From Gammaproteobacteria bacterium (lineage in GTDB: Bacteria; Pseudomonadota; Gammaproteobacteria; Arenicellales; JAANXG01): a stretch of DNA of 64,000 bases. Shown one piece after another: positions 18,429 through 40,611 of the stretch; position 1 is the stretch's first letter, and every line of letters begins with the position of its first letter. The stretch is from assembly GCA_024639325.1 (NCBI GenBank), contig JAHEIO010000008.1, positions 1 to 64,000 of the forward strand. The letters run 5' to 3'. A program made the position numbers and the translations under genes. The notes beneath the pieces are model-generated. The model was given only the letters and a program-made list of their open reading frames with translations. It was not told the DNA's origin and did not search any database.

Positions 18429-18436
18429 GTCAGCTC

Positions 18437-22071: not shown

Positions 22072-23148
22072 ATGAAGAACATTGTTATTTGTTGTGATGG
22101 AACCGGCAATCAGTACGGTGCGGCCAACACCAATGTCGTGAAGCTATTCCGGGCACTGGACCTCAGCGGTGATGCCGGCACGCAGCAAGTCGCTTTTTAC
22201 GATCCGGGCGTCGGCACCGGAAACCCGCGCGGTGCGATCACCCGCAGCCGCGTCGTCGCCAGTCAAATCCTAGGACTCGCTTTCGGCGTCGGCGTCTTCC
22301 GGAACATATCCGACGCCTACCGCTATTTAATGGAGGAATATGAACCCGGCGACCATGTCTATATCTTCGGCTTCAGCCGCGGCGCCTACACCGCCCGCGC
22401 GCTGACCGGCATGCTCCATATGCTCGGTCTGCTACACTCGGGGAGCTGGAACCAGATTCCCTACGCCCTCGAGCTCTATCGCAAGCGGGTGCCCAAAGAC
22501 GAGGACGGGAAAGCCGAGCACTTCAAAACCGCGCGCGGCTTCAAGGATACTTTCTCACGTGAATGCAAGCCCCACTTCATCGGGGTATGGGACACGGTGA
22601 AGACGGTCGGAGTCTGGGACGCGCTGAAGATCCAGGCGAAATGGCAAACCGCACTGCCCTACACCTTCTCCATGCCGGACGTCGCGTTTGGGCGTCACGC
22701 CATATCCATCGACGAGAGGCGGAGCCGCTTTCGTCCCAATATGTGGAGCCATCGTGAGGACAACACCATGCAGCAGGTGTGGTTTGCCGGTGTCCACTCG
22801 GATATCGGCGGGGGATACAAAGAATCGGGGCTTTCCGATATTGCGCTCAATTGGATGCTCAAAGGCGCGCAGCATCAGGGGCTCTCCCTCCGCGCGGACG
22901 CCTATGATCAGATCCATCCGGCGCCGACGCAGGAGATGCACAACTCCTTGACCTGGAAGTGGATCGCGGCGGGCTGGAAACGCCGCGCGGTGCGCGGCCC
23001 CGGCGAGTGGAACGAACAAACAAAGTCCTGGGCGGCTCGACCGCCGTCGGTCCATGAAAGCGTTCGAATCCGCATGGACAGTACGGACTACCAGCCTGGC
23101 TTGCCGGCTGACGCCCGCTTCGTCGACGACGGCTGGGACTCCGATTGA
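22072..23148 (+). CDS. DUF2235 alpha/beta-hydrolase (Tle1-like phospholipase)
   Basis: The ATG at 22072 has GGAG 5 bases upstream; the track-like earlier ATG at 22033 lacks a ribosome-binding site. 358 residues begin KNIVICCDGTGNQYG, the DUF2235 start. The nucleophile is Ser102 in the GFSRGAYTARAL motif; FIGVWDTVKTVG and VWFAGVHSDIGGGY supply further family motifs, with Asp and His candidates in VHSDIGG. DUF2235 includes phospholipase effectors of type VI secretion (Tle1) and many stand-alone cytosolic hydrolases. No VgrG, Hcp or immunity gene is near, so a secretion role is not supported. Its position behind the CHAT-MBL gene suggests a lipase effector of the same island. Confidence 0.87.
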   Translation: MKNIVICCDGTGNQYGAANTNVVKLFRALDLSGDAGTQQVAFYDPGVGTGNPRGAITRSRVVASQILGLAFGVGVFRNISDAYRYLMEEYEPGDHVYIFGFSRGAYTARALTGMLHMLGLLHSGSWNQIPYALELYRKRVPKDEDGKAEHFKTARGFKDTFSRECKPHFIGVWDTVKTVGVWDALKIQAKWQTALPYTFSMPDVAFGRHAISIDERRSRFRPNMWSHREDNTMQQVWFAGVHSDIGGGYKESGLSDIALNWMLKGAQHQGLSLRADAYDQIHPAPTQEMHNSLTWKWIAAGWKRRAVRGPGEWNEQTKSWAARPPSVHESVRIRMDSTDYQPGLPADARFVDDGWDSD

Positions 23149-23161
23149 CCCGTATTTCTCA

Positions 23162-23189
23162 CTAGCCCGCATCGCTCACCAGGCGGCTA
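23162..23189. repeat. REP-like hairpin (forward orientation)
   Basis: CTAGCCCGC at the left and GCGGCTA at the right form a hairpin around a short loop. It is the inverse of the copy at 9198-9226, and the two bracket the 9.2-23.2 kb block. Between 23190 and 23346 nothing else is seen. Confidence 0.6.
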
Positions 23190-23345
23190 TAGAATCTCGT
23201 TAAGCATGGCAAACATTGAGGTCTATGGATTTGTCCAAAAAACAGCGTGTCTCGGAAACGCCTATCCCGGCGCTGGCTGGTCCAGATCGCGATGTACTTG
23301 GGCTTCATCGGCACCCGTCCTGCGCCATCGCTCGGAGTCCGGATG

Positions 23346-24899: not shown

Positions 24900-24964
24900 T
24901 ATCAGTCTCCAGTGATTCTCGTCGAACGAACTCTAAAACTATACTTACGCACTTACGCAAAACT

Positions 24965-25951
24965 CTAAGACAGAACGCCGGAGATCAGCGATACTCGGGT
25001 ACAGTCTTCCCCCCTGCAGCCCTGGACCGGGCAGGTAAAAGACACGACACACGATCCGATGCTCTGGAAATCAGTCTCTCCACGGACCAGTATGCCTTCG
25101 ACTTCGTGCGTATTGGCATTGAAGACCGGAGAACCTGAATTTCCTCCATAGGTGTCCAGATTCGCGACGAAGAACTCTTCATTGTCGTTGCTTCTTACTT
25201 CTGCTTCTCCGGCTAGCTTTTTCGGTAATCCTGCGGGATGACCAATCACATAGAGCCTGGTGCCGTCGGCTACTTTGTTGGATCGCTGAATGACCAACGA
25301 TGTCCTGCCCTCCACCTTTCGATCCAATCTGACCACCGCCCAATCCGCCCCGTCGTTGTCAAGCTCCCAGCCAAGCAGCTCGGTGCCGGCGTAGACGTCC
25401 GCTGACGGGACGTTTACCGCGGCCTCATTCTCGGAAATCATGTGATATCCAAATACAAAGCGACGCGTGCCGATATTGCTTTGATTCAGGCAGTGACCAG
25501 CCGTGGCGACCAAATCCTCTCCAACCAAAAAAGCGGTACAAATCGCGCCGGCGGGCTGCGATCGAAACGGCTCGTCGTCACAAAGAGGGCTTCCGCCGCC
25601 CTCGAACTGTTGGGCCATAGTGGAAGACGGAAGTGACACGGTTCCATCTCCGTTGTCTACTACGTCACTAGTTTTGAATATTGCGGCGACGCTGCCGGAG
25701 TTTCGTAGCGCGTCCTGGTCTTGCACGTCTTTGATTTCCTGTCTGTCGTCTTCCCCGTATATGACTTTTTGGCGAGCCACTATCTCGTTGGCAATGTCTT
25801 TGGAAGAATAGCTTTCGAGATCTGGCCGGGGTTCCCTGGATATCGCGTTACTGGATGCGGTCAAATCCAAACCTGATTTCAATTTGCTCCGAGAACGTAA
25901 TTCTTCGCGCAGTTCCGATATGCTCATGGAAGGCAACGACTTATCATTCAT
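24965..25951 (-). CDS. Trypsin-like serine protease (S1/V8 type)
   Basis: I use the ATG at 25951, which has AGAGGT upstream, instead of the GTG at 25969. The 328-residue product has His153 in VATAGHCL, Asp203 in GADWAVVRLD and Ser272 in YGGNSGSPVF, a full catalytic triad in a glutamyl-endopeptidase/V8-like fold. The N-terminal ~85 residues are charged and helical (SISELREELRSRSKLKSG) with no signal peptide, possibly an adaptor segment that binds a partner. The short SISELREEL start recalls small N-terminal adaptors in protease-linked conflict proteins, but I cannot assign it. Operon with the S8 protease downstream. Intact, unlike the trypsin-like gene at 16016-16738. Confidence 0.87.
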   Translation of the reverse strand: MNDKSLPSMSISELREELRSRSKLKSGLDLTASSNAISREPRPDLESYSSKDIANEIVARQKVIYGEDDRQEIKDVQDQDALRNSGSVAAIFKTSDVVDNGDGTVSLPSSTMAQQFEGGGSPLCDDEPFRSQPAGAICTAFLVGEDLVATAGHCLNQSNIGTRRFVFGYHMISENEAAVNVPSADVYAGTELLGWELDNDGADWAVVRLDRKVEGRTSLVIQRSNKVADGTRLYVIGHPAGLPKKLAGEAEVRSNDNEEFFVANLDTYGGNSGSPVFNANTHEVEGILVRGETDFQSIGSCVVSFTCPVQGCRGEDCTRVSLISGVLS

Positions 25952-26124
25952 TCCGAATACCTCTCTCACAGGACAAGATTGTCCGATAAATGCTCCGCTA
26001 GCCTGGTGTTTATTGATGTGGCATTACCCACAGAACTCAACTAAACGCGATGCTCTTGTTTCTGCGGATGCGTTACTCATGTATGCGTGCTCGACTTAGT
26101 TGACAGCATCGTGTCTGTTATGAA

Positions 26125-26580: not shown

Positions 26581-26619
26581 GGGTCTCCTTTCATTATTGG
26601 ACTCTCGTCAATGGCGGTT

Positions 26620-29520
26620 CTACATTTCAAACGCCGGATCGTCAACGGCGTCGGCGCGGGGCCGCCAAGCCAGGGAGTAGTACTCTCCACGATCGCGGGC
26701 CCATGGATCGAATGTATTTACCACGTGAATCAGCTCGTCACGCAATTCCGGTACGTTTCGCATGAGGACGCGCTTTAGAGGCGATACTGAAATCACGCGT
26801 TCGTTGGACGGTTCTGGTTCGTTACATTGCCGTTTACCATCTTTCCCGGTTTGCACCGGATACGGGCAATCGTCCGATGGCCCGTTGTTCATCACCCAGT
26901 TGTAGCCAAGATGTGAGTAGAATTCGGGTCGAAAGCTGGAAGTGAAAAAGCGGTCGCTGAACAAACGTCGGGATGCATTTATGATGAAAACGTGGAACTG
27001 GGTTTCCGAAATAGCGAAGCCGTGAGGCCGTGTATATTCGGCCAGCCAACCCACCACCGTGTCGACGTCCTCCACGTTGTCCACCACCGACTTGTCCGCA
27101 TGTCCGAGGCAATCGTCGATAAATTTACCATCTTCCCCATACTGAGCGTTGGTAATAATCTTGCCTTCATCACATGCGTGGGCGCCGTAGATCTCACGGA
27201 GCATTGACACCACTTCCTCCTGAGCTCGACGCTGCGGCGAGCCCATTGGCAAACGCTGGTCTATAAAGTCATCGAAGCTGCTCAGAGACTTCAACCCTAT
27301 CTGGCGGCGGAATTCATTGTATCGTGGTATGCCGCGTTCCCTGTCGCGGAAAATATCCAGGGCCGCGATGTCGAGCTTGTTGCCGGGTTCCAGATGACCC
27401 ATGTCCAGGTTCTGTAAAAACATGGGGTGATTCCGCAAGTGCAGCAAACCCAACCGCTGCCGGCCCATACTCAGCGCCCAGTTCCCTAGGCCGCGCGCGC
27501 GCATTTCCCTACTGGCCTCGCCGCGCACTGTCTTTACTACCGGTATTTTGAGCGCAATCGCGTTCGGGCGCTGCAAATCGCGGTACTCTATGAGGTCCGG
27601 CACCAGCGCGTGCAATCGATACACGCTGGTGAATTCTTCAGGAAAGTTGAACGGCGAACCGAAGTGGTTTACACCTCCGTTGACATCATCCGGATTGGCG
27701 AGGTCCCAGCGGTCTTGTTTCCACCATAATTGCCCGCTTACCCGGCTGTTGTTCAGCCCGAAAATACCGGCGCCTGACGCTAACACGGAATACCAGCTAT
27801 TCGACTCATCCCCTTTACTCTGCATTCCCAACGTTCTTGCGATCCGGCTGGACGTGCGACTGAATACGTTCTGTTCTTTATCAAATATTTTTTTAAGCAC
27901 CAGGGAAACATCGTCCTCGCCGAGGTTGAACAGGCCGAACCAATTCGCGTTCATTACCCTGTAAAGCGGTTCACTGTAGAGGAGCTGTGGAGTCCACTCA
28001 ATGGTATGGATCTTCGCGATCAAAGCTGATACCACCAGCCGGGCCGCCTGGTAGATTTCCTCGTCCGATGCATCGGCATAAGCGATTACGCGTGCCGGCG
28101 CATCCGGGTGCCGCATACCGGAGTCGGCTTTCGGTGATCGGAGCTGCTGCTGGCGAAAGCTGTCGACGAAGCCGTTGTGCTCGCGAACGAACAAGTTGTG
28201 ATAAAAACTCATTCCGATGTTCCAGTTATCCGGGAAAGCGGCCGCTTCCTGACCGTGCCACTGCGGTTCTATGCGACACTCGGGGAAGCACTCGTCGAGC
28301 AGCGGCAGGTAACCCTCCGGTTGCAGTAGTTTGGCCGGATCATCGGGGTCACGAATCGCTCGCTTCAACGACGCAGCGTCGTAGCCGTAAATTTGGGATG
28401 CGTCCCACCACGCCGTTACCGTATTGGCGGTCGTTTTCGGTGCGCGCCTCAAGTGGGCGACGCCTTTGTGGTCGAACGTGCCCGGCGCATCTTCCAACTC
28501 GAACAAGGACCCCTCCGCGCGGTCCTGGGGCCGGCAGCCAAGTGCGCGCGCTTGTTCGGATTCGCACCCCGCCGTGATGAGGCCGGATTGGTTGCGGCCT
28601 TCATGGAGATGTGAAAACCAGTCGTGGGTCATGAACTGGATCCAAAACGCGGCCAGCACGTTGAAGACGGGAGCCTTCAAATAATCGCAATGTGCGGTGG
28701 TGGCGTAGTCGGCGGCTCCGTGTCCCTCGTTGCAGGTGTCACTTTTCTGCTGCCGAGTGAACAGCACGCGGCTGATCAGCTGTGGATCTGGCTTGTATAG
28801 ATCGATACGACTGCCGTTATTCCGGTCACCGTGCCTCGCCCTGGCCAGTTCGTTATTTCCGAGTCGAGGAAAAGTAGATTCGAAGTCGACATTGCGTGAA
28901 AAATAGGCGCCGCTGGAACCCATTTTAGGGTTTCGGATATCGTTACATATACCAGTCAACGTCCGGTGACGTATGAGCTCTCCACTACACAGTTGCGGCC
29001 CGCTGCCGCCCACGGACGCATAGTCCGGGTGGTCCGCAGTTAAGCGCATCTCTTGCCATTGATTCAAGGCGGAACCGGGTCTATCGCCGGCACCTTTGAC
29101 ATAGGTCTCATAGGTATAGTTGTCAAACAGGTTGAATTTTATCAATTCGATGCGCTGGTATTCGAGATCCAGCAGCGAACCATCGATACCCCGGCCATTG
29201 GGTTTCAGGTGTGTGCCCAGCAGGGTTTTCGCTTCTTCCCCGGCCTTGAGCGTGCTCGCATCACCGGTTGCCCAGTAGTTCGCCCAGTCGACCCAGGGCG
29301 TGCGGCGCTGACCGGCCGCCTTGTCACCGCCGCGGCACTGCGCTGTAGACGCCTCGACTTTACCCAGGAATCTTTCGGATCTGACTTCGGCGATCGGCCG
29401 CAAGCCACTCTTGGCCATTTCGATGCACGCGGCCACGTCACTGGCGCTGAAACCTGCGGACGGTTCTGCCGCCAGACAAATCGCCAGAACGGCATTGAAA
29501 ATTGCATACCTGCTTTGCAC
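26620..29520 (-). CDS. Exported animal-type haem peroxidase
   Basis: 966 residues with an N-terminal signal peptide (about 1-23, cleavage after AGFSA). The peroxidase-cyclooxygenase superfamily core is clear: distal-side WIQFMTHDWFSH, then NTVTAWWDASQIYGYD, YHNLFVREHNGFVDSF, and the C-terminal region with a likely proximal His followed by NFPEEFTSVYRLHALVPD. The family uses H2O2 to oxidise halides, phenols or lipids. The enzyme should act in the periplasm or outside. It is longer than the ~550-residue catalytic core; the extra N-terminal 280 residues show no other domain I recognise. Operon with the 151-residue protein downstream. It belongs to a local set of peroxide enzymes (36-46 kb). Confidence 0.88.
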   Translation of the reverse strand: MQSRYAIFNAVLAICLAAEPSAGFSASDVAACIEMAKSGLRPIAEVRSERFLGKVEASTAQCRGGDKAAGQRRTPWVDWANYWATGDASTLKAGEEAKTLLGTHLKPNGRGIDGSLLDLEYQRIELIKFNLFDNYTYETYVKGAGDRPGSALNQWQEMRLTADHPDYASVGGSGPQLCSGELIRHRTLTGICNDIRNPKMGSSGAYFSRNVDFESTFPRLGNNELARARHGDRNNGSRIDLYKPDPQLISRVLFTRQQKSDTCNEGHGAADYATTAHCDYLKAPVFNVLAAFWIQFMTHDWFSHLHEGRNQSGLITAGCESEQARALGCRPQDRAEGSLFELEDAPGTFDHKGVAHLRRAPKTTANTVTAWWDASQIYGYDAASLKRAIRDPDDPAKLLQPEGYLPLLDECFPECRIEPQWHGQEAAAFPDNWNIGMSFYHNLFVREHNGFVDSFRQQQLRSPKADSGMRHPDAPARVIAYADASDEEIYQAARLVVSALIAKIHTIEWTPQLLYSEPLYRVMNANWFGLFNLGEDDVSLVLKKIFDKEQNVFSRTSSRIARTLGMQSKGDESNSWYSVLASGAGIFGLNNSRVSGQLWWKQDRWDLANPDDVNGGVNHFGSPFNFPEEFTSVYRLHALVPDLIEYRDLQRPNAIALKIPVVKTVRGEASREMRARGLGNWALSMGRQRLGLLHLRNHPMFLQNLDMGHLEPGNKLDIAALDIFRDRERGIPRYNEFRRQIGLKSLSSFDDFIDQRLPMGSPQRRAQEEVVSMLREIYGAHACDEGKIITNAQYGEDGKFIDDCLGHADKSVVDNVEDVDTVVGWLAEYTRPHGFAISETQFHVFIINASRRLFSDRFFTSSFRPEFYSHLGYNWVMNNGPSDDCPYPVQTGKDGKRQCNEPEPSNERVISVSPLKRVLMRNVPELRDELIHVVNTFDPWARDRGEYYSLAWRPRADAVDDPAFEM

Positions 29521-30118: not shown

Positions 30119-31435
30119 ATGACGATCGGCGGATACAGAATCCGGACTGCCTGTCCGCGGCGCTTTCGGAAGTTGCTCCCGCTTCTCCTGTTCATGGTTG
30201 CACCACAGTTTCTACTGGTGTCGTGCGGCTCGGAGCAGGATTCAAATCCCACCAAAATTACAGTCACCACACCTGCGCCCAAGGCTACGGTGGATCCTTC
30301 GATATCGAACGATTTGAAAACAGATGTACCGGATCAACCAAGATCGCTCGGCGCCGCGCCACAGTACGAAACGGAAGCCGAACTGATCAAGCGAAAGCTG
30401 GATGAACTATCCTCGGGGAACATTCTCTTCAATCCACCGGAACAAATGACGCTCGACAAGAAAGAACGGATCGAGATTCGTTTGGCTACGGACCGGATAT
30501 CCGAAAAAGATCTGGCCGAGGGTCTGGTAGGTGAAGGAGAACCGCGAATCGAAACAATCAAGATCGGTACTTTCATGAAAGTACAACTGTGCTGCGGACC
30601 GCCTGAGGAAGGCCACGCTTTTGACATCGTGGCGTTGAATAGTTCGGAGCAGATCGTAACGGACACGCGGGCAACGCAATGGTCTTTCGATGTAACTCCC
30701 AGAAAACGCGGCCTGCAGAGCCTGACACTGACGGTTACGGTCCGTCTGAATCTGCCTGACGGCAAGGAAGAGAAAGTCGACCACCCCCTCATCGAGAGAC
30801 CAATCCGCGTCAATGTGACCACGACAGCCCTACTGAAGAGCTGGCTGACCGAGCATTGGCAATGGCTGGCATCGACCTTGCTGATTCCATTGGTCGTCGT
30901 GCTGTGGCGGTTCGCCAGAAAATCGCAGCAGCGAAGCAGACGAACGGCGGCCGTACAAAAATCCCAAAAATCCGATGCTAGCGGTGTGTTTATCAGCTAC
31001 CGGCGCGATGACAGTAAATGGTTCGCACGCAGTTTGAACGAAACTCTGAGCAGCACATTGGGAGATGAACGAGTCTTCATCGACGTTGCCGACATCGATC
31101 TGGGCGTTGATTTTACCCAGGCAATCAATGACACTTTACAACAATGTAAGGTCCTGGTGGCTATCATTGGAGAGCACTGGTTGAGCGCCTCCAACAACCA
31201 GGGGCGTAGAATCGATGATCCGGATGATTACGTTCGACTTGAAATCGCTTCGGCCCTCAAACGCAACATTCGAGTGATACCGGTACTCGTCGAGAATGCC
31301 AGTATGCCGTTAGCGGGCGACTTGCCGGAGGAGATCAAGGCGCTGGCGCGCCGAAATGCCATTCAACTCAGCCACGCGAATTTCGAAGACGGTGCCAAAC
31401 GACTAACAGACACCCTAAAAAGGTTACTGAGCTGA
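30119..31435 (+). CDS. Lipoprotein-anchored transmembrane TIR-domain receptor
   Basis: 438 residues. The start has a lipoprotein-type signal peptide with lipobox LVSC (Cys36). Residues about 40-245 form a periplasmic beta-rich region with low-complexity linker (TPAPKATVDPS). A membrane helix follows (about 248-268, WLASTLLIPLVVVLWRF). Residues about 284-438 form a TIR domain: GVFISYRRDDSKWFARSL, VFIDVADIDLGVDFTQAI, VLVAIIGEHWL, and Glu375 in DDYVRLEIASAL at the NADase catalytic position. Topology predicts an external sensor with a cytosolic TIR. Bacterial TIR domains cleave NAD+ or make cyclic ADP-ribose signals. The exported caspase genes start 550 bases downstream. A link between surface sensing, NAD-derived signalling and caspases is inferred. 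Confidence 0.87.
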   Translation: MTIGGYRIRTACPRRFRKLLPLLLFMVAPQFLLVSCGSEQDSNPTKITVTTPAPKATVDPSISNDLKTDVPDQPRSLGAAPQYETEAELIKRKLDELSSGNILFNPPEQMTLDKKERIEIRLATDRISEKDLAEGLVGEGEPRIETIKIGTFMKVQLCCGPPEEGHAFDIVALNSSEQIVTDTRATQWSFDVTPRKRGLQSLTLTVTVRLNLPDGKEEKVDHPLIERPIRVNVTTTALLKSWLTEHWQWLASTLLIPLVVVLWRFARKSQQRSRRTAAVQKSQKSDASGVFISYRRDDSKWFARSLNETLSSTLGDERVFIDVADIDLGVDFTQAINDTLQQCKVLVAIIGEHWLSASNNQGRRIDDPDDYVRLEIASALKRNIRVIPVLVENASMPLAGDLPEEIKALARRNAIQLSHANFEDGAKRLTDTLKRLLS

Positions 31436-31819
31436 GCGAACAGTCCCCATTACGGGAAGCATCCCACGAATAGACGGGCTTGATCATGTATATGATACCG
31501 GCCGTTCACCAATCCAATGAATCAAAATCCGTGGACAATTCGAAGCTACCGAGCAGTCGTTCAATTCGAACACGATTTCATCTTGTTGGTATATACCAAT
31601 CGGCAGCAATCCGTACTGACGGTCAATTGTTCTGACGAACTGCGCTCTATCTTTCTTGCTAAACGCTATTCGTAGTGCCTAAAATAAACGAACTCTATGA
31701 TTGAATAAGGCAAGAACCCCGCCCCTGACCAAGCAGGGTTCAGGCGGCGCTGGATGTGCTACCCGTAAATCCCATATCAATAAAAAAATCAGGCAACCTC
31801 TTATAAATTCAGTATTTGG
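31436..31819. other. Intergenic region, no gene seen
   Basis: No open frame with a ribosome-binding site. Near 31717-31745 a GC-rich inverted repeat (AACCCCGCCCCTGACC, then CAGGGTT) could end the TIR transcript but lacks a clear T-run. The dispersed repeat at 31820 follows. Confidence 0.4.
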
Positions 31820-31940
31820 TCATCGCGAACGAAGTGAAACAATCCAGCACCCTAGTTATTCGAGAACTTATGGATGGCCGCGTCCTGCCACGCTTCGCTC
31901 GCAGCTTCGGGACGCTCCTCGCAATGACACAATTGATCAG
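31820..31940. repeat. Dispersed MITE-like intergenic repeat (copy 2)
   Basis: Imperfect terminal inverted repeats: TCATCGCGAACGAAG at the left and CTCCTCGCAATGACA at the right. The inner right half (CGCTTCGCTCGCAGCTTCGG) matches the copies at 18437-18495 and 57428-57530 in opposite orientation. The AATTGATCAG edge also matches copy 1, showing a shared boundary. Confidence 0.65.
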
Positions 31941-31998
31941 AACTCCCCCAGATGTTTCTGACGCGATGAGTTAGGCAGCCCTGAAAGTGGTGCTCGTT

Positions 31999-33165
31999 AT
32001 GATAAGCACGCCAATCGACAACAAAACCGTGTATTGGTTTTTTATGCGCAGCTGTCTCAGCCTGCTGTTCTTGTATTTTTTGCTTCCGCTTCCAGCACTT
32101 GGCCAGACCGACCGAAACATCATGGGGGTCTGTCGTAGCAGTCATTTGACTGTCGGCGGCCTGGATACGTTCGAAGCGTGCGCCGATTTATATGACAAGG
32201 GATACGAGCTAAAGTGGCTGTATCTTAGATACGGCCAGTTGCTCGAAGAGCGAAATAAAATTGAATTGGCCAGAGAAGTGTATACCAAAGGCTTGGAGCG
32301 CTTCCCCGGCTACGCCAAACTGGTTACACGTATTGCTGACCTTGGCCCGGGGGATGATGGAATCGACGCCGATGCCGCTGCCCCGGTCGAATCCACCGAC
32401 GCGGTGCGAGGTGCGATAAGTATCGCCACGGCGCTTCAGGAGCAGCCGATAGAATACGGAACATATCATGCCCTGGTAATAGGCAATAACGACTATCGGC
32501 ATCTTTCAGTACTCAAAACCGCCGTAAACGATGCGCGCACCATTGCGGCGTTGTTACAAGAGCAATATGGATTCAAAGTTACATTGCTCGAAAATGCCAC
32601 CCGCTCGGACATTATTTTCCAGCTCGCAAGACTGCGGCGAGATCTGCTGGCAACAGATAACCTGCTCATCTATTACGCCGGGCACGGCAGTGTCGACACC
32701 GATACCGGTCGAGGCTACTGGCTGCCGGTGGATGCTGAAAAAGGGAATCCCACGAATTGGATTGCAAACGACGACATAACGACGCAGTTAAAGGCCATGC
32801 TTGCCAAACATGTGCTCGTTGTCGCCGATTCTTGCTACTCGGCTACCCTGACCCGCTCCACCGATCTGAATCTTCGCACCGGCGGTACCGACGAGTGGAT
32901 CAAGCGAATGGTGAGAAGACGTTCCCGCACCGTACTGACATCCGGCGGCCTCGAGCCTGTTGTCGATTCAGGCGGCAACAACCATTCAGTGTTTGCCAAT
33001 GCCTTTATCGACGCTCTGAGAAACAACGAGTCCGCGATCGATATGGTTGCCCTGTTCGAACCGATAAAACGGCACGTGGTTCTGCGCGCCCGGCAGACGC
33101 CGGTGTATTCAGATATTCGATTTACCGACCACGACGATGGTGATTTTATCTTTGCTCCGAGGTAA
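31999..33165 (+). CDS. Exported caspase (peptidase C14) protein 1
   Basis: Product of about 388 residues. The start is uncertain: GTG 31987, ATG 31999 or ATG 32044; the last gives the cleanest signal peptide (MRSCLSLLFLYFLLPLPALG). After a helical, TPR-like N-terminal segment (YLRYGQLLEERNKIELAREVYTKGLERFPGYAK), the caspase domain spans about 150-388: YHALVIGNNDYRHLSVLKTAVNDAR, catalytic His in LIYYAGHGS (His229 from ATG 31999), catalytic Cys in VVADSCYSA (Cys279). The dyad is complete. It should act in the periplasm. Caspases of this class cut after Arg/Lys in bacteria. It is convergent with a second caspase, 3 bases apart, which is unusual. Confidence 0.88.
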   Translation: MISTPIDNKTVYWFFMRSCLSLLFLYFLLPLPALGQTDRNIMGVCRSSHLTVGGLDTFEACADLYDKGYELKWLYLRYGQLLEERNKIELAREVYTKGLERFPGYAKLVTRIADLGPGDDGIDADAAAPVESTDAVRGAISIATALQEQPIEYGTYHALVIGNNDYRHLSVLKTAVNDARTIAALLQEQYGFKVTLLENATRSDIIFQLARLRRDLLATDNLLIYYAGHGSVDTDTGRGYWLPVDAEKGNPTNWIANDDITTQLKAMLAKHVLVVADSCYSATLTRSTDLNLRTGGTDEWIKRMVRRRSRTVLTSGGLEPVVDSGGNNHSVFANAFIDALRNNESAIDMVALFEPIKRHVVLRARQTPVYSDIRFTDHDDGDFIFAPR

Positions 33166-33168
33166 ACC

Positions 33169-35085
33169 CTACCGGCTGACCCGCAACAGCTGCTGACGGG
33201 TCGTCCAGGCACCGGTTGACACCGGTTTAGCCGCCCGGACGCCGTGAAACACTTCGGCAAGGAATCTGTTCAATGGATCTTGTAATGCATCCGTTTGAGC
33301 CGGCGGCGCGCCGCGGATGCCCCCCTGCGGAAACACCGCGGGATTTATGGGTTCGTTGGTTGCGATAACCTTGAGCACATCCCGAACCGAGTCGCGTCCC
33401 TCTGGGACGAACATCTCGATCGTCCGGCTGAACTTTTCACCGGGAGGCAAAGCCTGCTGCTCTCCTGCGACCGGCGGGTACAGCAGTGCCACGCTGCCGT
33501 CGCTCGACACGTCCAGCACGGTCAGATAGAGCGGCTGGCTGTGTTGATTGGTCACCAGGTAGCTGATGCGGGAGCCACCCGTCACCTCGCGAGGCGCCGG
33601 TACACCCTCGGCGTCGCCTTCCCGTCGGAGATCGAATTCGATCTGCAGGTCCGACATCGGGTTCTTGAGATCGAACACCGTCAACCAGTGCGTGAGATCC
33701 GTAACCTGGTTCACCACGCGCTCAACCGCCGCGTCATCGAATTCCGCCACCGGCGCCGCCAATGACTCCAGATCGCCGCTCGTCACGGTGATTCGGTTGC
33801 CAAGCCGATCAACGATGATCCTGGCATCTGCTTCGCTGTCGACCAGTTCCAGGGTTGTGGTCGCCGCCAGCTCGTCCGCGATGCGGGCCAGCTGTTCACC
33901 CTCTCCGACCGCGACGTAGACCGGTATGCCCGCCTCTCCATAGCTCACCGCCTCGAGCACGCCCCTGGAGTGTGCCTGGATGCTGCCGCCGGCGATGATT
34001 TTAGCGGTCGATGTAAACGCCTCCGTGGTGGTGACTGCGACAGTCGCGATTTCTTCCCCTGACCGAAAATCCTTGGTCTGCGGTGGATATACACGCAACG
34101 TCGCGGCCTTTCGGATGCCGTAGACCTCACCGGCCTCGATCTTCACCGAATCACCCCCCAGCGGTTCGACCAGGACATAGGGTTGGGTGTTGATGCGGTC
34201 GGTGCCGAACACCCTCAGATCCGTACCCTGTCCTTCCAGCTGTGGATGCTGACTCGGGAACCTGCTGCTGACCTCGGCTTCGACCTCGTGCATCACATCC
34301 TGATAGGTGACGTCCTCGCCCGCGGCCTGCAGCGCTGCGGTCAGGAACCAGCTCAGGGCGCCATGGCGCTGCCCGTTGAACCGGGTCTCGTTGGACAATT
34401 CGTTGGCACGGCAGCCGGAGATCAGCACGTAGTCTGACCCCTCCAGCTGCACGCCGGCGATCCCCTCGTCCGCGCCCCGGGTGCCGCTCAGCGCATACTC
34501 CGGGGGAGGCGGCGGTGGACGGTCGTCCGGATCGATCTTGCGCACCGTATTGCCACCGGCGCGGGATATCGCCCCGGAGTGGCAGCTGTCCAGAATAAAG
34601 GTGACGTTTCCGGTCTTCGCCGTAAGCTGCTTGAGCAGGCCGTTGATCTGATCGTCGCTGATATCGAATATCCCTTCCGTACGGCTGTCGTGGGGAACGA
34701 TTGTCTCGTCGAGATCGTCGATCTCGTCACCCGAAACATCTCTCATCTGCGAACCATGACCGCTGTAGTGCAGGATGACAACGTCGCCCGCCCGCGCCGG
34801 ATCAATCAGGTGGGTCCGGATCGCGTCGACGATCCCGGCGTGAGTCGCTGCCGCGTTGGTCAGCAGTCGGATATTGTCTGGCGGCACTTCGAATTTGCCG
34901 ACCAGAACGTTTCTCATCAACTGTACGTCGTTTACGCAGCCATGCAAATCCGATACGTGATCCGCCCTGTAATCGTCAACGCCGATCAGCAATGCACGCT
35001 TGGTGGGACTGTCTGCGGACAACACCGGTGTGACCGACAAAAACAAACAGGTAATCCCAAATCCAAAAATCTGTCGGTAACCCAT
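33169..35085 (-). CDS. Exported caspase (peptidase C14) protein 2 with DUF4384-like C-terminus
   Basis: 638 residues with a signal peptide (about 1-24). The caspase domain is about 28-305: KRALLIGVDDY, His110 in LHYSGHGS, Cys168 in LDSCHSGAISR, then a PPPPPP stretch in the loop after the catalytic Cys, where activation cleavage often occurs. The C-terminal half includes a DUF4384-like domain (YLVTNQHSQPLYLTVLDVSSDGSVALLYPP, about 510-620). This is the common bacterial caspase-DUF4384 type. It lies tail-to-tail with the caspase at 31999-33165. A 54-codon frame precedes it on the same strand. Both catalytic residues are intact, so an active periplasmic protease is likely; its substrate is unknown. 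Confidence 0.9.
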   Translation of the reverse strand: MGYRQIFGFGITCLFLSVTPVLSADSPTKRALLIGVDDYRADHVSDLHGCVNDVQLMRNVLVGKFEVPPDNIRLLTNAAATHAGIVDAIRTHLIDPARAGDVVILHYSGHGSQMRDVSGDEIDDLDETIVPHDSRTEGIFDISDDQINGLLKQLTAKTGNVTFILDSCHSGAISRAGGNTVRKIDPDDRPPPPPPEYALSGTRGADEGIAGVQLEGSDYVLISGCRANELSNETRFNGQRHGALSWFLTAALQAAGEDVTYQDVMHEVEAEVSSRFPSQHPQLEGQGTDLRVFGTDRINTQPYVLVEPLGGDSVKIEAGEVYGIRKAATLRVYPPQTKDFRSGEEIATVAVTTTEAFTSTAKIIAGGSIQAHSRGVLEAVSYGEAGIPVYVAVGEGEQLARIADELAATTTLELVDSEADARIIVDRLGNRITVTSGDLESLAAPVAEFDDAAVERVVNQVTDLTHWLTVFDLKNPMSDLQIEFDLRREGDAEGVPAPREVTGGSRISYLVTNQHSQPLYLTVLDVSSDGSVALLYPPVAGEQQALPPGEKFSRTIEMFVPEGRDSVRDVLKVIATNEPINPAVFPQGGIRGAPPAQTDALQDPLNRFLAEVFHGVRAAKPVSTGAWTTRQQLLRVSR

Positions 35086-35128
35086 CGCTCACAATCTCCA
35101 GAAACAACAAGCCTATACACGGATGAGG

Positions 35129-35293
35129 CTACTCATATATCCCCATCTCCTCCAGAATCGCATCGACAACGCGCGTCGTCAAAGTATCGAGATTGCGTCT
35201 GGAATCCCGAATGTCAAATTTTGCCACAGTGTCGGCCAACCGGCCCAGCGCCATTTGACAAAGTGATACGCCTGTTGGTTTCTTCGATTGCAT
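35129..35293 (-). CDS. Small 54-residue protein upstream of caspase 2
   Basis: ATG 35293 to TAG at 35129 encodes MQSKKPTGVSLCQMALGRLA..., ending VVDAILEEMGIYE. It is helical, amphipathic and charge-balanced, with a composition like a real short protein. It ends 43 bases before the caspase start on the same strand. There is no clear Shine-Dalgarno. It could be a small partner or regulator of the caspase, or a chance frame. No family recognised. Confidence 0.4.
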   Translation of the reverse strand: MQSKKPTGVSLCQMALGRLADTVAKFDIRDSRRNLDTLTTRVVDAILEEMGIYE

Positions 35294-35387
35294 GAGCCAA
35301 GATATACTAATGCCATTGCGACAGGATGTTTTTTCGTGGTTGCGGAATCTTCTCGATCATGGTTGACAAAAAACAGGAGGTAAAGTC

Positions 35388-36230
35388 TTGATCAAGGCCG
35401 TGGTTCGCTATGGTGACGGGATTGGGCGGCGTTCCTGGTTGAGAAGTGTCGTTAAAAACGTTCAACAAGGGCTGGTCAATGCCGGACTCCCGGTGGGCGT
35501 AGATGGTCGTTTCGGAGCCGGCACGCGTACGACAGCTAAAGCCTTTCAACAGGCCAACGGCCTGGAACCAACCGGCGTTTTCGATGAAGCCACTTGGAAA
35601 ACCGTTTCTGAGCACCTGCCCCAACCCGCTGCCGACGTCGATTTACTGCTTAAAAGCTTTGACGGTGATTTGGACTGGGTGCATCAACAGGAAGGATTTC
35701 GGGGCCGCCCTTACTGGCCTGGGGGTGCTTCCGGTGTCACCTTGGACCCGGGGATCGATCTTGGACATGCATCCACGGACTTCATAGAAGCGCTTTACGG
35801 TCCATTGTTGACCAAGAGACAAATGGGCGCGTTGCGGTTGGTTTTGGGTTTCAAAGGTGCAGATGCGCGCGATGCCCTTAAAATGTCTCGATTAATCCAG
35901 AGTATTCGAATCACTTCGGTTGAAGGCGTAGCGCTGATGCCTCATACCGCCAAACCCTATTGGGGCGGCATCACGCGCCGTTTCCCCGCCCTCGTACGCA
36001 AGGATACACCGGCGTCAGTTCAAACCGTTTTGCTTTCGTTGGCATACAATCGAGGCATTCTAAACCGTCACTTAGAACGTCTCGGTGCGCCGCTCAAAGC
36101 AAAAAAATGGGACCACGTCGCCGCGATCATCGGTTCCATGCAGCAGAATCACAAGCTGAAGGGCATCCGTGTCCGCCGGCGGCAGGAAGGAATGGTGATC
36201 GAGGCCGAACTCCGCTTCTTGGCGTCCTGA
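35388..36230 (+). CDS. Peptidoglycan-binding domain + pesticin-like lysozyme
   Basis: Starts at TTG 35388 with AGGAGGT 6 bases upstream. 280 residues. Residues about 20-75 form a PG_binding_1 domain (VQQGLVNAGLPVGVDGRFGAGTRTTAKAFQQANGL). Residues about 90-280 form a pesticin-type muramidase domain: catalytic Glu102 in HQQEGFRG, GGASGVTLDPGIDLGHAS with likely Thr/Asp partners, and SVQTVLLSLAYNRG. There is no signal peptide, so release would need a holin, lysis or another route. It lies between the caspases and the peroxide cluster. It could be a phage-derived endolysin, a toxin, or the lysis effector of the neighbouring signalling genes; this is open. Confidence 0.87.
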   Translation: MIKAVVRYGDGIGRRSWLRSVVKNVQQGLVNAGLPVGVDGRFGAGTRTTAKAFQQANGLEPTGVFDEATWKTVSEHLPQPAADVDLLLKSFDGDLDWVHQQEGFRGRPYWPGGASGVTLDPGIDLGHASTDFIEALYGPLLTKRQMGALRLVLGFKGADARDALKMSRLIQSIRITSVEGVALMPHTAKPYWGGITRRFPALVRKDTPASVQTVLLSLAYNRGILNRHLERLGAPLKAKKWDHVAAIIGSMQQNHKLKGIRVRRRQEGMVIEAELRFLAS

Positions 36231-36303: not shown

Positions 36304-37500
36304 TCAAAACACTTCGCTGCCGTCGGGTTCGAAATGGGTCGTTTTATTCATTTTCAGTCGCACCGCGGACAATTCCTTGTACATCCGGAGCCGGGCGCGG
36401 CTTTGATTACCCAAAGGACGATGATCGTGCAAACAATGCCAGGGATTGATGGTTAAACGTTTTGCGAACTCAAATTGTGCGGCGGAATCGAATTTTTGTT
36501 TGGGAATATGAATAGTTGCCGCAGGAATAAACGGAGATATTTCTTCCGGCCATCGCACCGCGTTGTTTTCTATGGGCATTCGATGCGGGTCGGTTTGTAC
36601 CTGCAACAGAAAATCAAATTCCACGTCATGCTCGTCAAGCGTCCTCACCATGTTGTCGCGCAGATAGTTAAACGAGATCTTACCAAACGGAGCACCTGCA
36701 ATATCGCGCACAACTTCGGTCTTTGGAGCGTAGGAATAGACCATGGCTTGACCCTGGCCGAGCAGGTAGGGAACGCAGCTGAAATACCGGTGGCCCAACG
36801 GATTCAATATCGTCTCATTCCACAATGACTGCATAAAAAAATCAAGAATATGAGAATCCAGTGGATTGAAAAAATAAATCATGCCCAGATCGTGAAGACT
36901 CCAATACTGAAGTTTTGCATTCTCACGTGTATTTGGGGTCACAAACGTCGGGGTGCATATCGCAGGGAAGTCCTGGGTAAATTTTTCGTCGTCCAGCATT
37001 TTTTCGCCGGGTACCTCCATGATCTTCAAAGACATGCTGGCAAAGCCGATATCCCGTATATCCGCGGGCACATCGGGGCCAGGTCCTGCAAATCGTACGT
37101 ACGCGGGATAGCTGCGCACCTCGGCAAAAATACCTTTGCGCATATGCTCCGGCAGATCGTCACGGACGGTTACGGTCGCACGCACAATGCCGTGGGTTTT
37201 CGTATTTCCTCCACGTTCGTAAGCACCCGGTTTGAAATGGCCGCGCATTTGTTCCGCCATCAACTTGATAATGTCGTCGTTTGCCTGTTCTTCCCAGTCA
37301 AAATGCTTTTCTTCCGCCAACCCCAGTGCTTCGTCTTTGCGTCTGAAGTTAATCAAATATTGGATCACTTTGGCGGTCGGTTCCCGCGTAAACCTGTTCA
37401 ATGCGGGCCTGAAGAACGGCTCTAGGCGCCGCTCTATGTGCAGCAGCTCCTCGAAAACACGATGCATGAACCGCAGTAATTTGAAGAACAATTCTTTCAT
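36304..37500 (-). CDS. Catalase-fold haem protein (catalase-like, not classical catalase)
   Basis: 398 residues without signal peptide. Catalase-core features are visible: a MRGHFKPGAYERGGNTKTHGIVRATVTV segment where classical catalases have the distal His region, FAEVRSYPAYVRFAGPG, and C-terminal RLTINPWHCLHDHRPLGNQSRARLRMYKEL with the R...Y haem-ligand pattern. It is shorter than catalases and resembles the catalase-related group that includes allene oxide synthase-like and peroxide-shunt enzymes acting on fatty acid hydroperoxides. Its ATG overlaps the DyP stop (ATGA), so the two are translationally coupled. A lipid hydroperoxide role is suggested by the group and by the haem peroxidase nearby, but not shown. 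Confidence 0.8.
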   Translation of the reverse strand: MKELFFKLLRFMHRVFEELLHIERRLEPFFRPALNRFTREPTAKVIQYLINFRRKDEALGLAEEKHFDWEEQANDDIIKLMAEQMRGHFKPGAYERGGNTKTHGIVRATVTVRDDLPEHMRKGIFAEVRSYPAYVRFAGPGPDVPADIRDIGFASMSLKIMEVPGEKMLDDEKFTQDFPAICTPTFVTPNTRENAKLQYWSLHDLGMIYFFNPLDSHILDFFMQSLWNETILNPLGHRYFSCVPYLLGQGQAMVYSYAPKTEVVRDIAGAPFGKISFNYLRDNMVRTLDEHDVEFDFLLQVQTDPHRMPIENNAVRWPEEISPFIPAATIHIPKQKFDSAAQFEFAKRLTINPWHCLHDHRPLGNQSRARLRMYKELSAVRLKMNKTTHFEPDGSEVF

Positions 37501-39014
37501 TTGCCAGGGCCCGCAGACTCAGCTACATATTTCAAAGCACGTATGCCGGGGAGAAAGAAGTAGGCGCCGCCTCGCACGGTGACGAATTGCGGCATCCCGG
37601 TCAGGCACTTACGCGGACCCGAAAACTGTTGGATGCTGAAATTGTCTGTCGGGCTGCCGTCAATCAGGGGTTGTCGATTTCCCAGCAATGGGTCCGTTTC
37701 ATCTTGTAACCCATCGAACTTGCCATTGACTATCCAGGCATTCTGTACGAATTCGAATTGCCTGCTTATGTTGCCGCACAGGCAAATAAACTGCAGTCCG
37801 CGCTCGTCTCGATCGTCGATTGCCGCCACGGCATCGGCGGGTTTGAGCCTGAGTCCATAAGGTCGACCGCGGCGCAGCATCCGGTGGAAACGGGTCGAAG
37901 CAACCAGGTCTTCGGTTGGGCTATCGCGCCCGAAGCCCAGGATGCGTATCAGTCGCGAAATAGGCCCGGCTACGTCGGGTGGGAAGTCTCCGGTACGGGG
38001 ATTTGAGCGCCGGATATGTGCGCCAACAGGACACACCTGTCCCTTCGGGTCAGCGGCATAGTTGAAGTTGTTCAATTTGCTATGTTTTTCAGGAGTGCCG
38101 GCAACATCTCCCTTAACCGTTGGCATAAGCGGAGTACCGTCACGTTTACGTCCCACCATGGCCGCGGCCAGTTTCTTTCGATTTTTGCTATCGCCATCCG
38201 CGGCCTGATCAACATACTTCCAAAAACCAGGAACATCCTGTTGAAGTTGTCTTAAAACCAGGTAGGTGCCGTTTCGTCCCAAATCTTTCAACCGAGGGTT
38301 GTCTTCGGCGCCCGGTAAGATATCAGCCGGACCATCATCGGCGGACGTTATCAACGGCCGGTCCGTATAGTAGCCATATTCGTTGGGGTAACCGAGAACA
38401 ATTTCTCCGGCTGCAAGCAGGTTCGAGTATTGGTCCCGCCTGTGGGTATCCGTGCTCTGTTCACGATGCCAGTCGATCACCGGTTGACTGATCCCATCGG
38501 CAAAGCCGAACGGTTCATCTTTCACCCGCGTGTTGGTGGGCAGGATTTTTTGTATGAATGCCTGTTCGAATTGTCGACCGGTGACCTGCTGTTTCCAGGC
38601 ATCCAATCCTTTTTTGACGGCGTAAAGCATCAGCAGTGCATCCGGGATATCCTCCTCGCCCCCTCCCCAATCCCAGTATTCGGGAGCGTTTTTTCCGATA
38701 TCCCCAAGCCGCCTCGAGCGATTGGCGCTCGTCATCCCGGACAGAAACTCGTCGGAAAAACCCGCAATGACCGTTTCCCTTACTCCCAACTTTTGCAGGC
38801 CCGCGGCGGTAAATGCGATTTGCAGCGCCGTTTCCGGTCGGGACCTCTGCGGAGATTTTACAGCGGTGGTCACCGGCGCCTGCGCCAGCCATTGTTTTGC
38901 CAGTGCAGTGTCCCGTATTTTGAGCAACAGAAAACACGTTTCCACCATGTGAGCGTGGGCGAAGTGGACGATGCCTTGCACGTCGTCGAACTCGAATTCA
39001 GTATTGTCAAGCAT
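37497..39014 (-). CDS. DyP-type haem peroxidase
   Basis: I start at ATG 39014 (GGAAAG upstream). The frame is open to 39068, but that part lies inside a transposon-like element (39038-39307). 505 residues show the DyP pattern: FGFADGISQP (GxxDG with catalytic Asp), GAHIRRSNPR (proximal His region) and FICLCGNISRQFEFVQNAWI. No Tat signal is evident, so it is probably cytosolic or encapsulated. DyP enzymes oxidise dyes, phenols and haem-like substrates with H2O2. It is in an operon: 435-residue protein, then (element), then DyP, then catalase-like protein. Confidence 0.9.
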   Translation of the reverse strand: MLDNTEFEFDDVQGIVHFAHAHMVETCFLLLKIRDTALAKQWLAQAPVTTAVKSPQRSRPETALQIAFTAAGLQKLGVRETVIAGFSDEFLSGMTSANRSRRLGDIGKNAPEYWDWGGGEEDIPDALLMLYAVKKGLDAWKQQVTGRQFEQAFIQKILPTNTRVKDEPFGFADGISQPVIDWHREQSTDTHRRDQYSNLLAAGEIVLGYPNEYGYYTDRPLITSADDGPADILPGAEDNPRLKDLGRNGTYLVLRQLQQDVPGFWKYVDQAADGDSKNRKKLAAAMVGRKRDGTPLMPTVKGDVAGTPEKHSKLNNFNYAADPKGQVCPVGAHIRRSNPRTGDFPPDVAGPISRLIRILGFGRDSPTEDLVASTRFHRMLRRGRPYGLRLKPADAVAAIDDRDERGLQFICLCGNISRQFEFVQNAWIVNGKFDGLQDETDPLLGNRQPLIDGSPTDNFSIQQFSGPRKCLTGMPQFVTVRGGAYFFLPGIRALKYVAESAGPGK

Positions 39015-39037
39015 ACTATCTTTCCATCGGACAGGCC

Positions 39038-39307
39038 CTAGTGTACCCCGTCGTAAATTCTGTGACATTCAGCGAAGCGACAAGCATCCGAATTCAAGGC
39101 GCATTCGCGAAGCACTAGCGAGCTAATGGCAGCGGATGCAACGCCGAAGGCGGGTGTTTGTCGATTCGCCCTGCGGGAGTCCCCCAAAAACCACGGCTAC
39201 TGCGTTGCACCTCTGGCCAATATCCGGATATTGCCTGCGAGGCGCGCCTTGTCCCCGTGTTTTTGGGGGACTCTGAATGTCACAGAATTTACCACGGGGT
39301 ACACTAG
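39038..39307. mobile_element. 270-bp MITE with 35-bp terminal inverted repeats
   Basis: The left end (39038-39072) begins CTAGTGTACCCCGTCGTAAA and the right end (39273-39307) is its inverse with one mismatch in 35 bases. The outer CTAG at both ends suggests an IS5-type CTAG/YTAR or TA target duplication. Inside, a second inverted pair reads AGTCCCCCAAAAAC and GTTTTTGGGGGACT (about 39179 and 39258). No transposase frame is present. It sits between two co-directional genes; its right edge supplies the TAG stop of the gene ending at 39304. Confidence 0.8.
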
Positions 39308-40611
39308 ATCTCACCCAACCATTCCTCGAGTTCGTTGGCCTTTCGGAAACTGGTTTTCTCAAGTCCTTCACGAATTCTTGCGTTACGGGCAAGTTCCACC
39401 GCGTTGATGTCCGGGTAAGCTTTGTACCAGACGTCGGTGTAGTGTTGATGCCTGCGTAAAAAATACTTGAATTTTTGCTCGCGTTCCGCACCGTCCTTGA
39501 GTAGCCAGCGAGTTTTGGGCCAACCGACACCGTTGCTGAACACGATATTCAGACCCCAGCCAACCTTGTTGATGAAGTCGTCCATGTAGCTTTCCAGATC
39601 ACCGTCATAATTGCTGGCAAAAAACAATCTGCGCTTGTCATCCAAAAGGACCCAGCGGGCGAAATGAATAGTTTGTACTCGCGTAAGGTAGCCCCTGCTG
39701 TATATGTGACGAGCGGCGTAGTTCAGCCCAAATAGGAATAAAATCACGGCATATCTTCGAAATAACCCGGGCTTTACGTCTCCAAAGGCGCTGAATTGGT
39801 TGGTAATCAGTCTATCTTCCGCGTCCGCCAAGCGGGCAACCGCGTCTCTGTCGGGACGGGGCGCAATTTCCGGGTCCGAGCGTTCAAGCGAACGTAATTT
39901 TGCGGCTAGGAATGGCGACAATACCAACAGCAGGGGGGTGAAAAGAAGCAGCACCAGCGGTACGGTAATTTTGTGAATTAAATTACCCAGCCACCACACT
40001 AAAGGAGTCTCCGGTGCTTTCGTCAAGACGAGTCTGCCCTGTTTTACTTCGTCATGCACGAAATCGCGCAAGGATTGATTAATTTGTTGTGGCGTTAAGG
40101 TGTTATTCTCCTGCTGAATTGCTTCGAGTCGTTTTCTTAGCGCTTCATGCAAAGCGGCTTCCTCATGGATCTGCGTGACGGTCCTGCCTATCCAGTTGAT
40201 ATAATTCGCCGCTGGTTTTTTGTTGTTTCTCTTCATCCATTCCGAGAGAATTTCTCTTTCGGGATCGAAGTCATGACAATGAGCAAATAATTTTCTTAGT
40301 CCGGGGCCGGCACGTTCGGCCAATTCGGCAAGGCAAAGTTCAAACGGTCCATCACAATCGCCTAAAAATATCAGGGTAGGAGGCCAGGGACGGGGGGCCA
40401 CACCGTAGATATTTATGTCATCCGTTGTTTGCGCTTCGATGATGACAAAGCGCGCAACGTGTAAACGCTCAAACCGAGCGAAGGGAACCAGACCGTTTTG
40501 TGGATCTACAACACCTGGCGCTGAATTCATTGTGGCCAACAACGCGCGCAGCTGCTCTACCCTGTCGCGGTAGATTTCAGCGCAGACCATGAAGGTGGAC
40601 TGTGGGGTCAT
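39304..40611 (-). CDS. Uncharacterised membrane protein with DyP-fold-like N-terminus
   Basis: 435 residues. The N-terminal ~120 residues (RLHVARFVIIEAQ, LIFLGDCDGPFELCLAELAERAGPGLRKLFAHC) look like the ferredoxin-like alpha/beta fold shared with DyP peroxidases. A membrane hairpin lies about 215-242 (ITVPLVLLLFTPLLLVLSPFL). The C-terminal part has RVQTIHFARWVLLDDKRRLFFASNYDGDLESYMDDFINK and SNGVGWPKTRWLLKDG, motifs I associate with a conserved unnamed family next to DyP genes. No haem-ligand set is clear. It is first in the peroxide operon. The TAG stop comes from the inserted element, so the natural C-terminus may have been different. Confidence 0.75.
   Translation of the reverse strand: MTPQSTFMVCAEIYRDRVEQLRALLATMNSAPGVVDPQNGLVPFARFERLHVARFVIIEAQTTDDINIYGVAPRPWPPTLIFLGDCDGPFELCLAELAERAGPGLRKLFAHCHDFDPEREILSEWMKRNNKKPAANYINWIGRTVTQIHEEAALHEALRKRLEAIQQENNTLTPQQINQSLRDFVHDEVKQGRLVLTKAPETPLVWWLGNLIHKITVPLVLLLFTPLLLVLSPFLAAKLRSLERSDPEIAPRPDRDAVARLADAEDRLITNQFSAFGDVKPGLFRRYAVILFLFGLNYAARHIYSRGYLTRVQTIHFARWVLLDDKRRLFFASNYDGDLESYMDDFINKVGWGLNIVFSNGVGWPKTRWLLKDGAEREQKFKYFLRRHQHYTDVWYKAYPDINAVELARNARIREGLEKTSFRKANELEEWLGEI

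What the first reader, a model, noticed from the sequence alone, without database searches (positions are those of the whole stretch)
30119..36230. Surface-sensing TIR receptor beside two exported caspases and a lysozyme
A lipoprotein-type signal plus membrane helix places about 200 residues outside and a TIR with Glu375 inside. Two periplasmic caspases with full dyads lie tail-to-tail 3 bases apart, and a leaderless pesticin-like lysozyme follows. This could be an envelope-damage or predator sensor that ends in cell lysis, a layout I do not know from described TIR systems such as Thoeris.
Basis: inference. Interest (0 to 1): 0.7.

Follow-up and report, generated by a model that had tools for sequence, protein, structure and literature searches.

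The report
Membrane TIR receptor beside exported caspases
An uncultured proteobacterium carries, in a changeable stretch of its chromosome, a receptor-like protein with a folded domain predicted outside the cell and a SARM1-like NAD-consuming (TIR) domain inside, next to two exported caspase-like proteases and a lysozyme; relatives suggest the outer domain and exported caspases belong to one theme, but the four genes are not shown to be a single machine.

Summary
TIR protein 30119-31435 has a lipobox (Cys36), an Ig-like beta-sandwich (86-232, AlphaFold), one membrane helix with a strongly basic inner flank, and a C-terminal TIR closest to SARM1; Glu375 aligns with SARM1's catalytic Glu642. Both caspases keep their His/Cys dyads and have signal sequences; the lysozyme is leaderless.

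The single "sensor-to-lysis" system is only partly supported. The four genes are in at least three transcription units, a dispersed repeat lies between TIR and caspase 1, and TIR and caspase 2 were absent from two of three congeners. In one relative contig 5 kb with a WD40-caspase separates caspase 2 from lysozyme. Two findings argue for more than chance. The TIR ectodomain belongs to a family without a Pfam or NCBIfam model, and the same domain is fused to exported caspases in an alphaproteobacterial family. Caspase 2 homologues recur in plasmid clusters with CHAT, WD40-caspase, trypsin, phospholipase and, once, lysozyme genes.

Best reading: a variable conflict island inside a peroxidase locus, with an envelope-sensing TIR NADase beside an exported caspase/lytic cassette. 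It is not type IV Thoeris. New variant of a known kind.

The parts
30119..31435 (+). Membrane TIR protein, 438 aa: lipoprotein-type signal (Cys36), linker 37-85, Ig-like ectodomain 86-232, membrane helix about 247-270, TIR 290-437 with E375
30374..30814 (+). Coding region of the ectodomain (residues 86-232), member of a family with no Pfam or NCBIfam model over threshold; also fused to caspase in Alphaproteobacteria
30986..31405 (+). TIR_2 domain, closest solved structures C. elegans TIR-1 and SARM1 TIR (Z about 16)
31795..31948 (+). Dispersed repeat in the 551-base gap between TIR and caspase 1
31987..33165 (+). Exported caspase 1 (C14, H233/C283), 392 aa; translation may start at the inner ATG (codon 20) just before the signal segment
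33169..35085 (-). Exported caspase 2 (C14, H110/C168, weak DUF4384), 638 aa
35388..36230 (+). Leaderless lysozyme-like protein: PG_binding_1 plus pesticin-like domain, TTG start with strong ribosome-binding site
35255..35259 (.). Site at which a relative's contig (G001:C263) carries about 5 kb more: a 345-aa lipoprotein and a 1237-aa lipoprotein WD40-caspase
26620..29520 (-). Animal-type haem peroxidase left of the island; its homologues are contiguous with DyP and other genes in G005/G006
36304..40611 (-). Three genes right of the island (398-aa protein without Pfam match, DyP-type peroxidase, 435-aa unknown) whose homologues are close to the haem peroxidase in G005/G006
10397..16009 (-). DUF7379/LCAT/CHAT protein, 1870 aa, part of the wider guild
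18545..21904 (+). CHAT + TPR-S protein, 1119 aa, part of the wider guild
22033..25969 (.). Tle1-like phospholipase (+), subtilase (-) and trypsin-like protease (-), part of the wider guild

Best explanation
This is a strain-variable conflict island inserted in a peroxidase locus. It holds two modules side by side. Module 1 is a membrane TIR receptor: its Ig-like ectodomain lies in the periplasm, anchored by an N-terminal lipid and a transmembrane helix, and its SARM1-like TIR lies in the cytosol. Ligand binding or disturbance of the envelope is inferred to cluster the ectodomains, so that the TIRs assemble and consume NAD+, stopping or killing the cell. Module 2 is an exported caspase cassette (two proteases plus a peptidoglycan hydrolase) that is inferred to act in the envelope, as attack or lysis machinery. 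Shown: genes, domains, catalytic residues, ectodomain family, recurrence of the caspase guild; topology is predicted. Inferred: NADase activity, the trigger, cell death, and any cross-talk between the modules.
For: TIR closest to SARM1-type TIRs by sequence and fold, with catalytic Glu aligned. Ectodomain predicted as a beta-sandwich with pLDDT mostly 75-92. In relatives the ectodomain follows a lipobox or N-terminal helix and precedes a Trp-rich helix with basic residues after it, so it lies outside. The same ectodomain is fused to caspases with GHG and DAC motifs, behind a lipobox and a proline-rich linker. 24 of 105 genomes of that family have two ectodomain proteins, each time one long and one short frame; 55 have the short one only; none has the long one only (counted). 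Caspase 2 homologues lie beside other caspase or CHAT genes in 9 of 11 inspected plasmid loci, and directly before an exported lysozyme in R. leguminosarum Tp73_4. Homologues of the island's flanks are contiguous in G005/G006. Purifying selection.
Against: No activity or trigger tested. Sensor-TIR fusion seen in only two genomes of 1213 searched. Most stand-alone ectodomain proteins have no defence-like partner, and a Clp_N version sits among housekeeping genes, so the domain is not confined to conflict proteins. A double lipid-plus-helix anchor is unusual. Plasmid loci were chosen by hand and some are related. Only 9 or so of the 24 long frames were checked to be caspases.
Confidence: 0.5

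Rival explanations
1. Chance neighbours in a genomic hotspot: orphan conflict genes of independent origin accumulate in a variable region and do not work together.
For: Mixed orientation, 551-base gap with a dispersed repeat, mobile-type hairpin at 39036-39312 (about twenty copies in G001), a 5-kb difference between caspase 2 and lysozyme in a relative, and no TIR or caspase 2 match in congeners G002 and G003.
Against: Two caspases 3 bases apart in a genome with four clear ones; recurrence of caspase/CHAT guilds in other phyla; shared ectodomain between TIR and caspase proteins.
Confidence: 0.27
2. One integrated envelope-damage system: exported caspases cleave or bind the TIR ectodomain (or the reverse), TIR depletes NAD+, and the lysozyme lyses the cell.
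For: Proximity, and the same ectodomain fused directly to exported caspases elsewhere, a fusion link suggesting that ectodomain and caspase act together; lysozyme directly after a caspase 2 homologue in Rhizobium.
Against: Not an operon; exact quartet known from one close relative only; lysozyme without leader or identified holin; the Rhizobium lysozyme is not a detectable homologue of the window's (no plasmid hit).
Confidence: 0.12
3. A Thoeris-like signal system: the TIR makes a cyclic ADP-ribose that activates a caspase (type IV Thoeris).
For: TIR and caspases adjacent; TIR with SARM1-like active site; type IV Thoeris pairs TIR with a caspase-like protease (PMC12847820).
Against: Both caspases carry signal sequences and would be outside the cytosol where the signal is made; separate units; Thoeris family models far below cut-off (39 against 220 bits).
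Confidence: 0.04
4. Caspases, lysozyme and phospholipase are secreted weapons against neighbours or prey, and the TIR is an unrelated antiphage protein.
For: Exported proteases, Tle1-like phospholipase, murein hydrolase; one Azospirillum caspase locus next to type VI genes.
Against: No type VI sheath gene (VipB) found in this 96%-complete genome; the window's lysozyme is leaderless; no immunity genes identified.
Confidence: 0.07

Closest known systems
SARM1-type TIR NADases
   Same: TIR fold, best sequence and structure match, catalytic Glu in the same motif
   Different: Membrane receptor with an extracytoplasmic beta-sandwich in place of ARM/SAM domains; activity untested
Type IV Thoeris (TIR plus caspase-like protease; Rousset et al. 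2025 as described in PMC12847820)
   Same: A TIR gene near caspase genes
   Different: Here the TIR is membrane-anchored, the caspases are exported, and the genes are not one operon
IL-1 receptor family layout (Ig domains, one membrane helix, cytosolic TIR; PMC7075850)
   Same: Order: Ig-like ectodomain, single helix, cytosolic TIR
   Different: No evidence of common descent of the ectodomain; lipid anchor; TIR is nearer to SARM1 and bacterial TIRs
Prokaryotic metacaspases/orthocaspases (PMC3501461)
   Same: C14 p20 with His/Cys dyad; N-terminal signal or helix, WD40 and FGE partners already recorded
   Different: Tandem exported pair in a gammaproteobacterial genome; gene guild with CHAT, protease, lipase and murein hydrolase genes
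Effector-rich conflict systems including the EACC1-caspase pair (Kaur et al. 2020, PMC7159879)
   Same: TIR, caspase, trypsin and TPR-type domains assembled in variable loci; membrane proximity
   Different: No EACC1 gene recognised; caspase model matched far below its cut-off
Caulobacter stalk protein StpX
   Same: Weak domain-level match of the stand-alone ectodomain protein L018 (E 1.6e-6) and three members of the alignment: an envelope protein
   Different: Far below the family cut-off; no TIR or caspase

Membership tests
SARM1-type TIR NADase | TIR fold | tested here: met
   (Z 14-16, rmsd 2.0-3.4 over 115-143 residues)
SARM1-type TIR NADase | Catalytic glutamate in the alphaC motif | tested here: met
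   E375 aligned with SARM1 KDWVHKE
SARM1-type TIR NADase | NAD+ hydrolysis or cyclisation | not testable with these tools
   needs an enzyme assay
Type IV Thoeris | TIR and caspase in one operon | tested here: not met
   551-base gap with dispersed repeat between TIR and caspase 1; caspase 2 on the other strand; transcription itself not tested
Type IV Thoeris | Cytosolic caspase-like effector | tested here: not met
   N-terminal signal-type segments on both caspases, by hydropathy only
Type IV Thoeris | TIR product N7-cADPR activates the caspase | not testable with these tools
   needs biochemistry
Thoeris ThsB/ThcB proteins | Match over curated cut-off | tested here: not met
   NF058526 39.3 bits, cut-off 220; weak partial PADLOC hits
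EACC1-caspase two-gene system | Caspase of EACC1-associated type over cut-off | tested here: not met
   NF047832 75.5 and 54 bits, cut-off 140
EACC1-caspase two-gene system | Upstream EACC1 gene | tested here: inconclusive
   no EACC1 model matched the proteins scanned; no dedicated EACC1 search was run
Peptidase C14 (caspase superfamily) | p20 domain with His/Cys dyad | tested here: met
IL-1R/TLR family | Ectodomain-helix-TIR order with TIR in the cytosol | tested here: met
   predicted only
IL-1R/TLR family | Homologous Ig or LRR ectodomain | tested here: inconclusive
   weak Foldseek matches to several Ig-like, PapD-like and MG-like domains; no single-domain model could be run
Pesticin-like lysozyme | Pfam Pesticin over cut-off | tested here: inconclusive
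   25.7 against 25.8 bits; single-sequence model unusable

The most novel reading that the evidence does not exclude
A bacterial surface immune receptor laid out like an IL-1 receptor (Ig-like ectodomain, one helix, SARM1-like TIR) whose ectodomain module is shared with exported caspases, so that one envelope signal drives caspase proteolysis outside and NAD+ loss inside.
Probability: 0.12. Interest if true: 0.85.

Novelty: new variant of a known kind. Interest (0 to 1): 0.52.

Why it matters
The best-studied bacterial TIR defence proteins sense intruders inside the cell. A TIR with a folded domain predicted outside would give bacteria a surface-to-cytosol death switch comparable in layout to animal TIR receptors. 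The ectodomain family defined here links TIR and caspase proteins, has no Pfam or NCBIfam model over threshold, and can be tested directly. The recurrence of exported caspases with CHAT, WD40, trypsin, lipase and murein hydrolase genes on plasmids points to an extracytoplasmic protease guild of unknown role.

Tried and rejected
Type VI effector reading for the Tle1-like lipase and lysozyme: no VipB found. Phage or prophage origin: no phage record matches TIR or lysozyme at 1e-5 and viral contigs gave no ectodomain relative; PHROGs hits for the lysozyme cover only its peptidoglycan-binding part. Wide ectodomain alignments were too divergent for pattern search. The genome scan with a narrow alignment found five stand-alone loci only. 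Fixed partner of the stand-alone ectodomain: none recognised. The lysozyme fold prediction without an alignment was useless (pLDDT 35). Known family for the ectodomain: no Pfam match better than E 0.004, no PDB sequence match; the VIA list for the full model was filled by TIR rows. The first paper search by domain names found nothing.

Full report
Observation. The four genes exist as described. The TIR protein has a long basic n-region, a hydrophobic stretch ending in the lipobox LVSC36|GS, a low-complexity linker (37-85), an all-beta domain (86-232, pLDDT mostly 75-92), one helix (247-270) followed by RKSQQRSRR, and a TIR domain (290-437). The closest solved sequence is SARM1 (E about 1e-5) and the closest folds are C. 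elegans TIR-1 and SARM1 TIRs (Z about 16). E375 aligns with the SARM1 glutamate in KDWVHKE; that this is the catalytic Glu642 is established knowledge. Caspase dyads are complete. Both caspases begin with signal-type segments, as do the other two clear caspases of the genome.

Topology. Evidence beyond hydropathy comes from relatives. Stand-alone members of the ectodomain family carry either a lipobox (L024, L039, L041) or an N-terminal helix (L018, L019, L042, L043), then the domain, then a helix, often Trp-rich and ending in Lys/Arg. Both patterns place the domain outside and the C terminus inside. Alphaproteobacterial proteins with lipobox, proline-rich linker, ectodomain and caspase, without a helix in between, place that caspase outside too. 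The double anchor of the window protein (lipid plus helix) is inferred.

The ectodomain family. It has no Pfam match better than E 0.004, and no NCBIfam match except a weak domain-level resemblance to the Caulobacter stalk protein StpX. Foldseek matches of this region are generic Ig-like, PapD-like and MG-like sandwiches with target TM at or below 0.5, so the exact fold class is tentative. Fusions: TIR in G000 and G001 only, of 1213 genomes searched, including all 109 held for the order; caspase in an alphaproteobacterial-type family (motifs verified in the fetched frames); and Clp_N in proteins between housekeeping genes. In that family 79 of 105 genomes have the domain: 24 have both a long and a short protein, 55 only the short, none only the long (counted). 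Relatedness was not corrected for, so this is suggestive of dependence, not proof. The class of that family is judged from gene content and is not confirmed by a name.

Neighbourhood. In G005 and G006 an animal-type haem peroxidase, a 356-aa protein, a 150-aa protein, a 452-aa protein and a DyP peroxidase are contiguous. In the window their homologues flank the TIR-caspase-caspase-lysozyme block, which is therefore probably an insertion or a rearrangement product in a peroxidase locus. The right-hand homologues are only 31-41% identical, so they may be paralogues. In the close relative G001 the left part lies on contig C135 and the right part on C128, both about 95% identical. A second contig, C263, has about 5 kb between caspase 2 and lysozyme, encoding a lipoprotein and a 1237-aa lipoprotein with WD40 repeats and an AGHG...DTC caspase-type segment; G001 has 8% contamination, so two strains may be mixed. 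G002 (98% complete) and G003 lack caspase 1, caspase 2 and the TIR protein by these searches. In G012 the peroxidase locus also carries an exported caspase 46% identical to caspase 1, a SLATT protein and a TPR-S protein.

The caspase guild. Eleven plasmid loci with caspase 2 homologues were inspected. Nine have another caspase or CHAT gene within 7 kb. R. leguminosarum Tp73_4 has a WD40-caspase, the caspase 2 homologue, an exported T4-type lysozyme, and two more WD40-caspases; WSM1325 has a WD40-type caspase overlapping the caspase 2 homologue, and a D-Ala-D-Ala carboxypeptidase further on. Pseudosulfitobacter has two caspases, trypsin-like proteases, patatin and CHAT. Rhizobium NXC14 has caspase, trypsin, serpin, kinase and subtilase. 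The window's own surroundings hold CHAT-LCAT, CHAT-TPR-S, Tle1-like lipase, subtilase and trypsin genes. Caspase genes are rare, at 0.03 per 1000 proteins in Gammaproteobacteria and 0.41 in Alphaproteobacteria (PMC3501461), so this clustering is far above chance, although the sample was hand-picked.

Mechanism. Most likely the TIR protein is a receptor-effector: signal outside, TIR assembly inside, NAD+ loss. The caspases and lysozyme form a neighbouring envelope-acting cassette. Fusion of the same ectodomain to caspases makes a functional tie between the modules possible, but the present gene order (opposite strands, a 551-base gap with a dispersed repeat) does not show one. A cytosolic lysozyme needs a way through the membrane, and none was identified. 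Type IV Thoeris is the nearest described TIR-caspase pathway (PMC12847820), but its caspase must meet a cytosolic signal; here the caspases are predicted outside, so membership is rejected.

Verdict. A real and functional-looking island. The receptor layout and the new ectodomain family are the interesting part; the four-gene lysis pathway remains a hypothesis.

Noticed in passing
window 39036-39312: About 270-base near-perfect hairpin (mobile-type element with inverted ends); about twenty copies in the congener G001.
   Followed up: partly
window 31795-31948, also 18432-18492 and 57426-57466: Dispersed repeat related to the segment between TIR and caspase 1.
   Followed up: partly
window 26125-29520 and 36304-40611; L044, L045: Family-conserved cluster of animal-type haem peroxidase, DyP peroxidase and unknown proteins.
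   Followed up: partly
L036 865-5588: Relative-specific lipoprotein plus lipoprotein WD40-caspase between caspase 2 and lysozyme.
   Followed up: yes
L046 169-9407: Exported Sel1/coiled-coil caspase, SLATT protein and TPR-S/MAP3K_TRAF_bd protein near a haem peroxidase in another genus.
   Followed up: partly
L109 4230-14498: Rhizobium NXC14 plasmid cluster caspase-trypsin-serpin-Ser/Thr kinase-subtilase, resembling a protease cascade with its inhibitor.
   Followed up: no
L050 7591-9240, L051 7200-8876: Clp_N domain (or Clp_N-like N terminus) joined to the ectodomain family, in the same housekeeping neighbourhood in two genomes.
   Followed up: no
L039 6474-8546: Stand-alone ectodomain lipoprotein directly after a phospholipase A2-like gene and a DUF6765 gene in a Neomarinimicrobiota MAG.
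   Followed up: no
L017 11875-12678 and L040 8001-8515: Ectodomain genes read in two frames (Calothrix plasmid; gammaproteobacterial MAG): frameshift or assembly error.
   Followed up: no
window 10397-16009: Very large protein joining DUF7379/LCAT lipase-like and CHAT protease domains.
   Followed up: no
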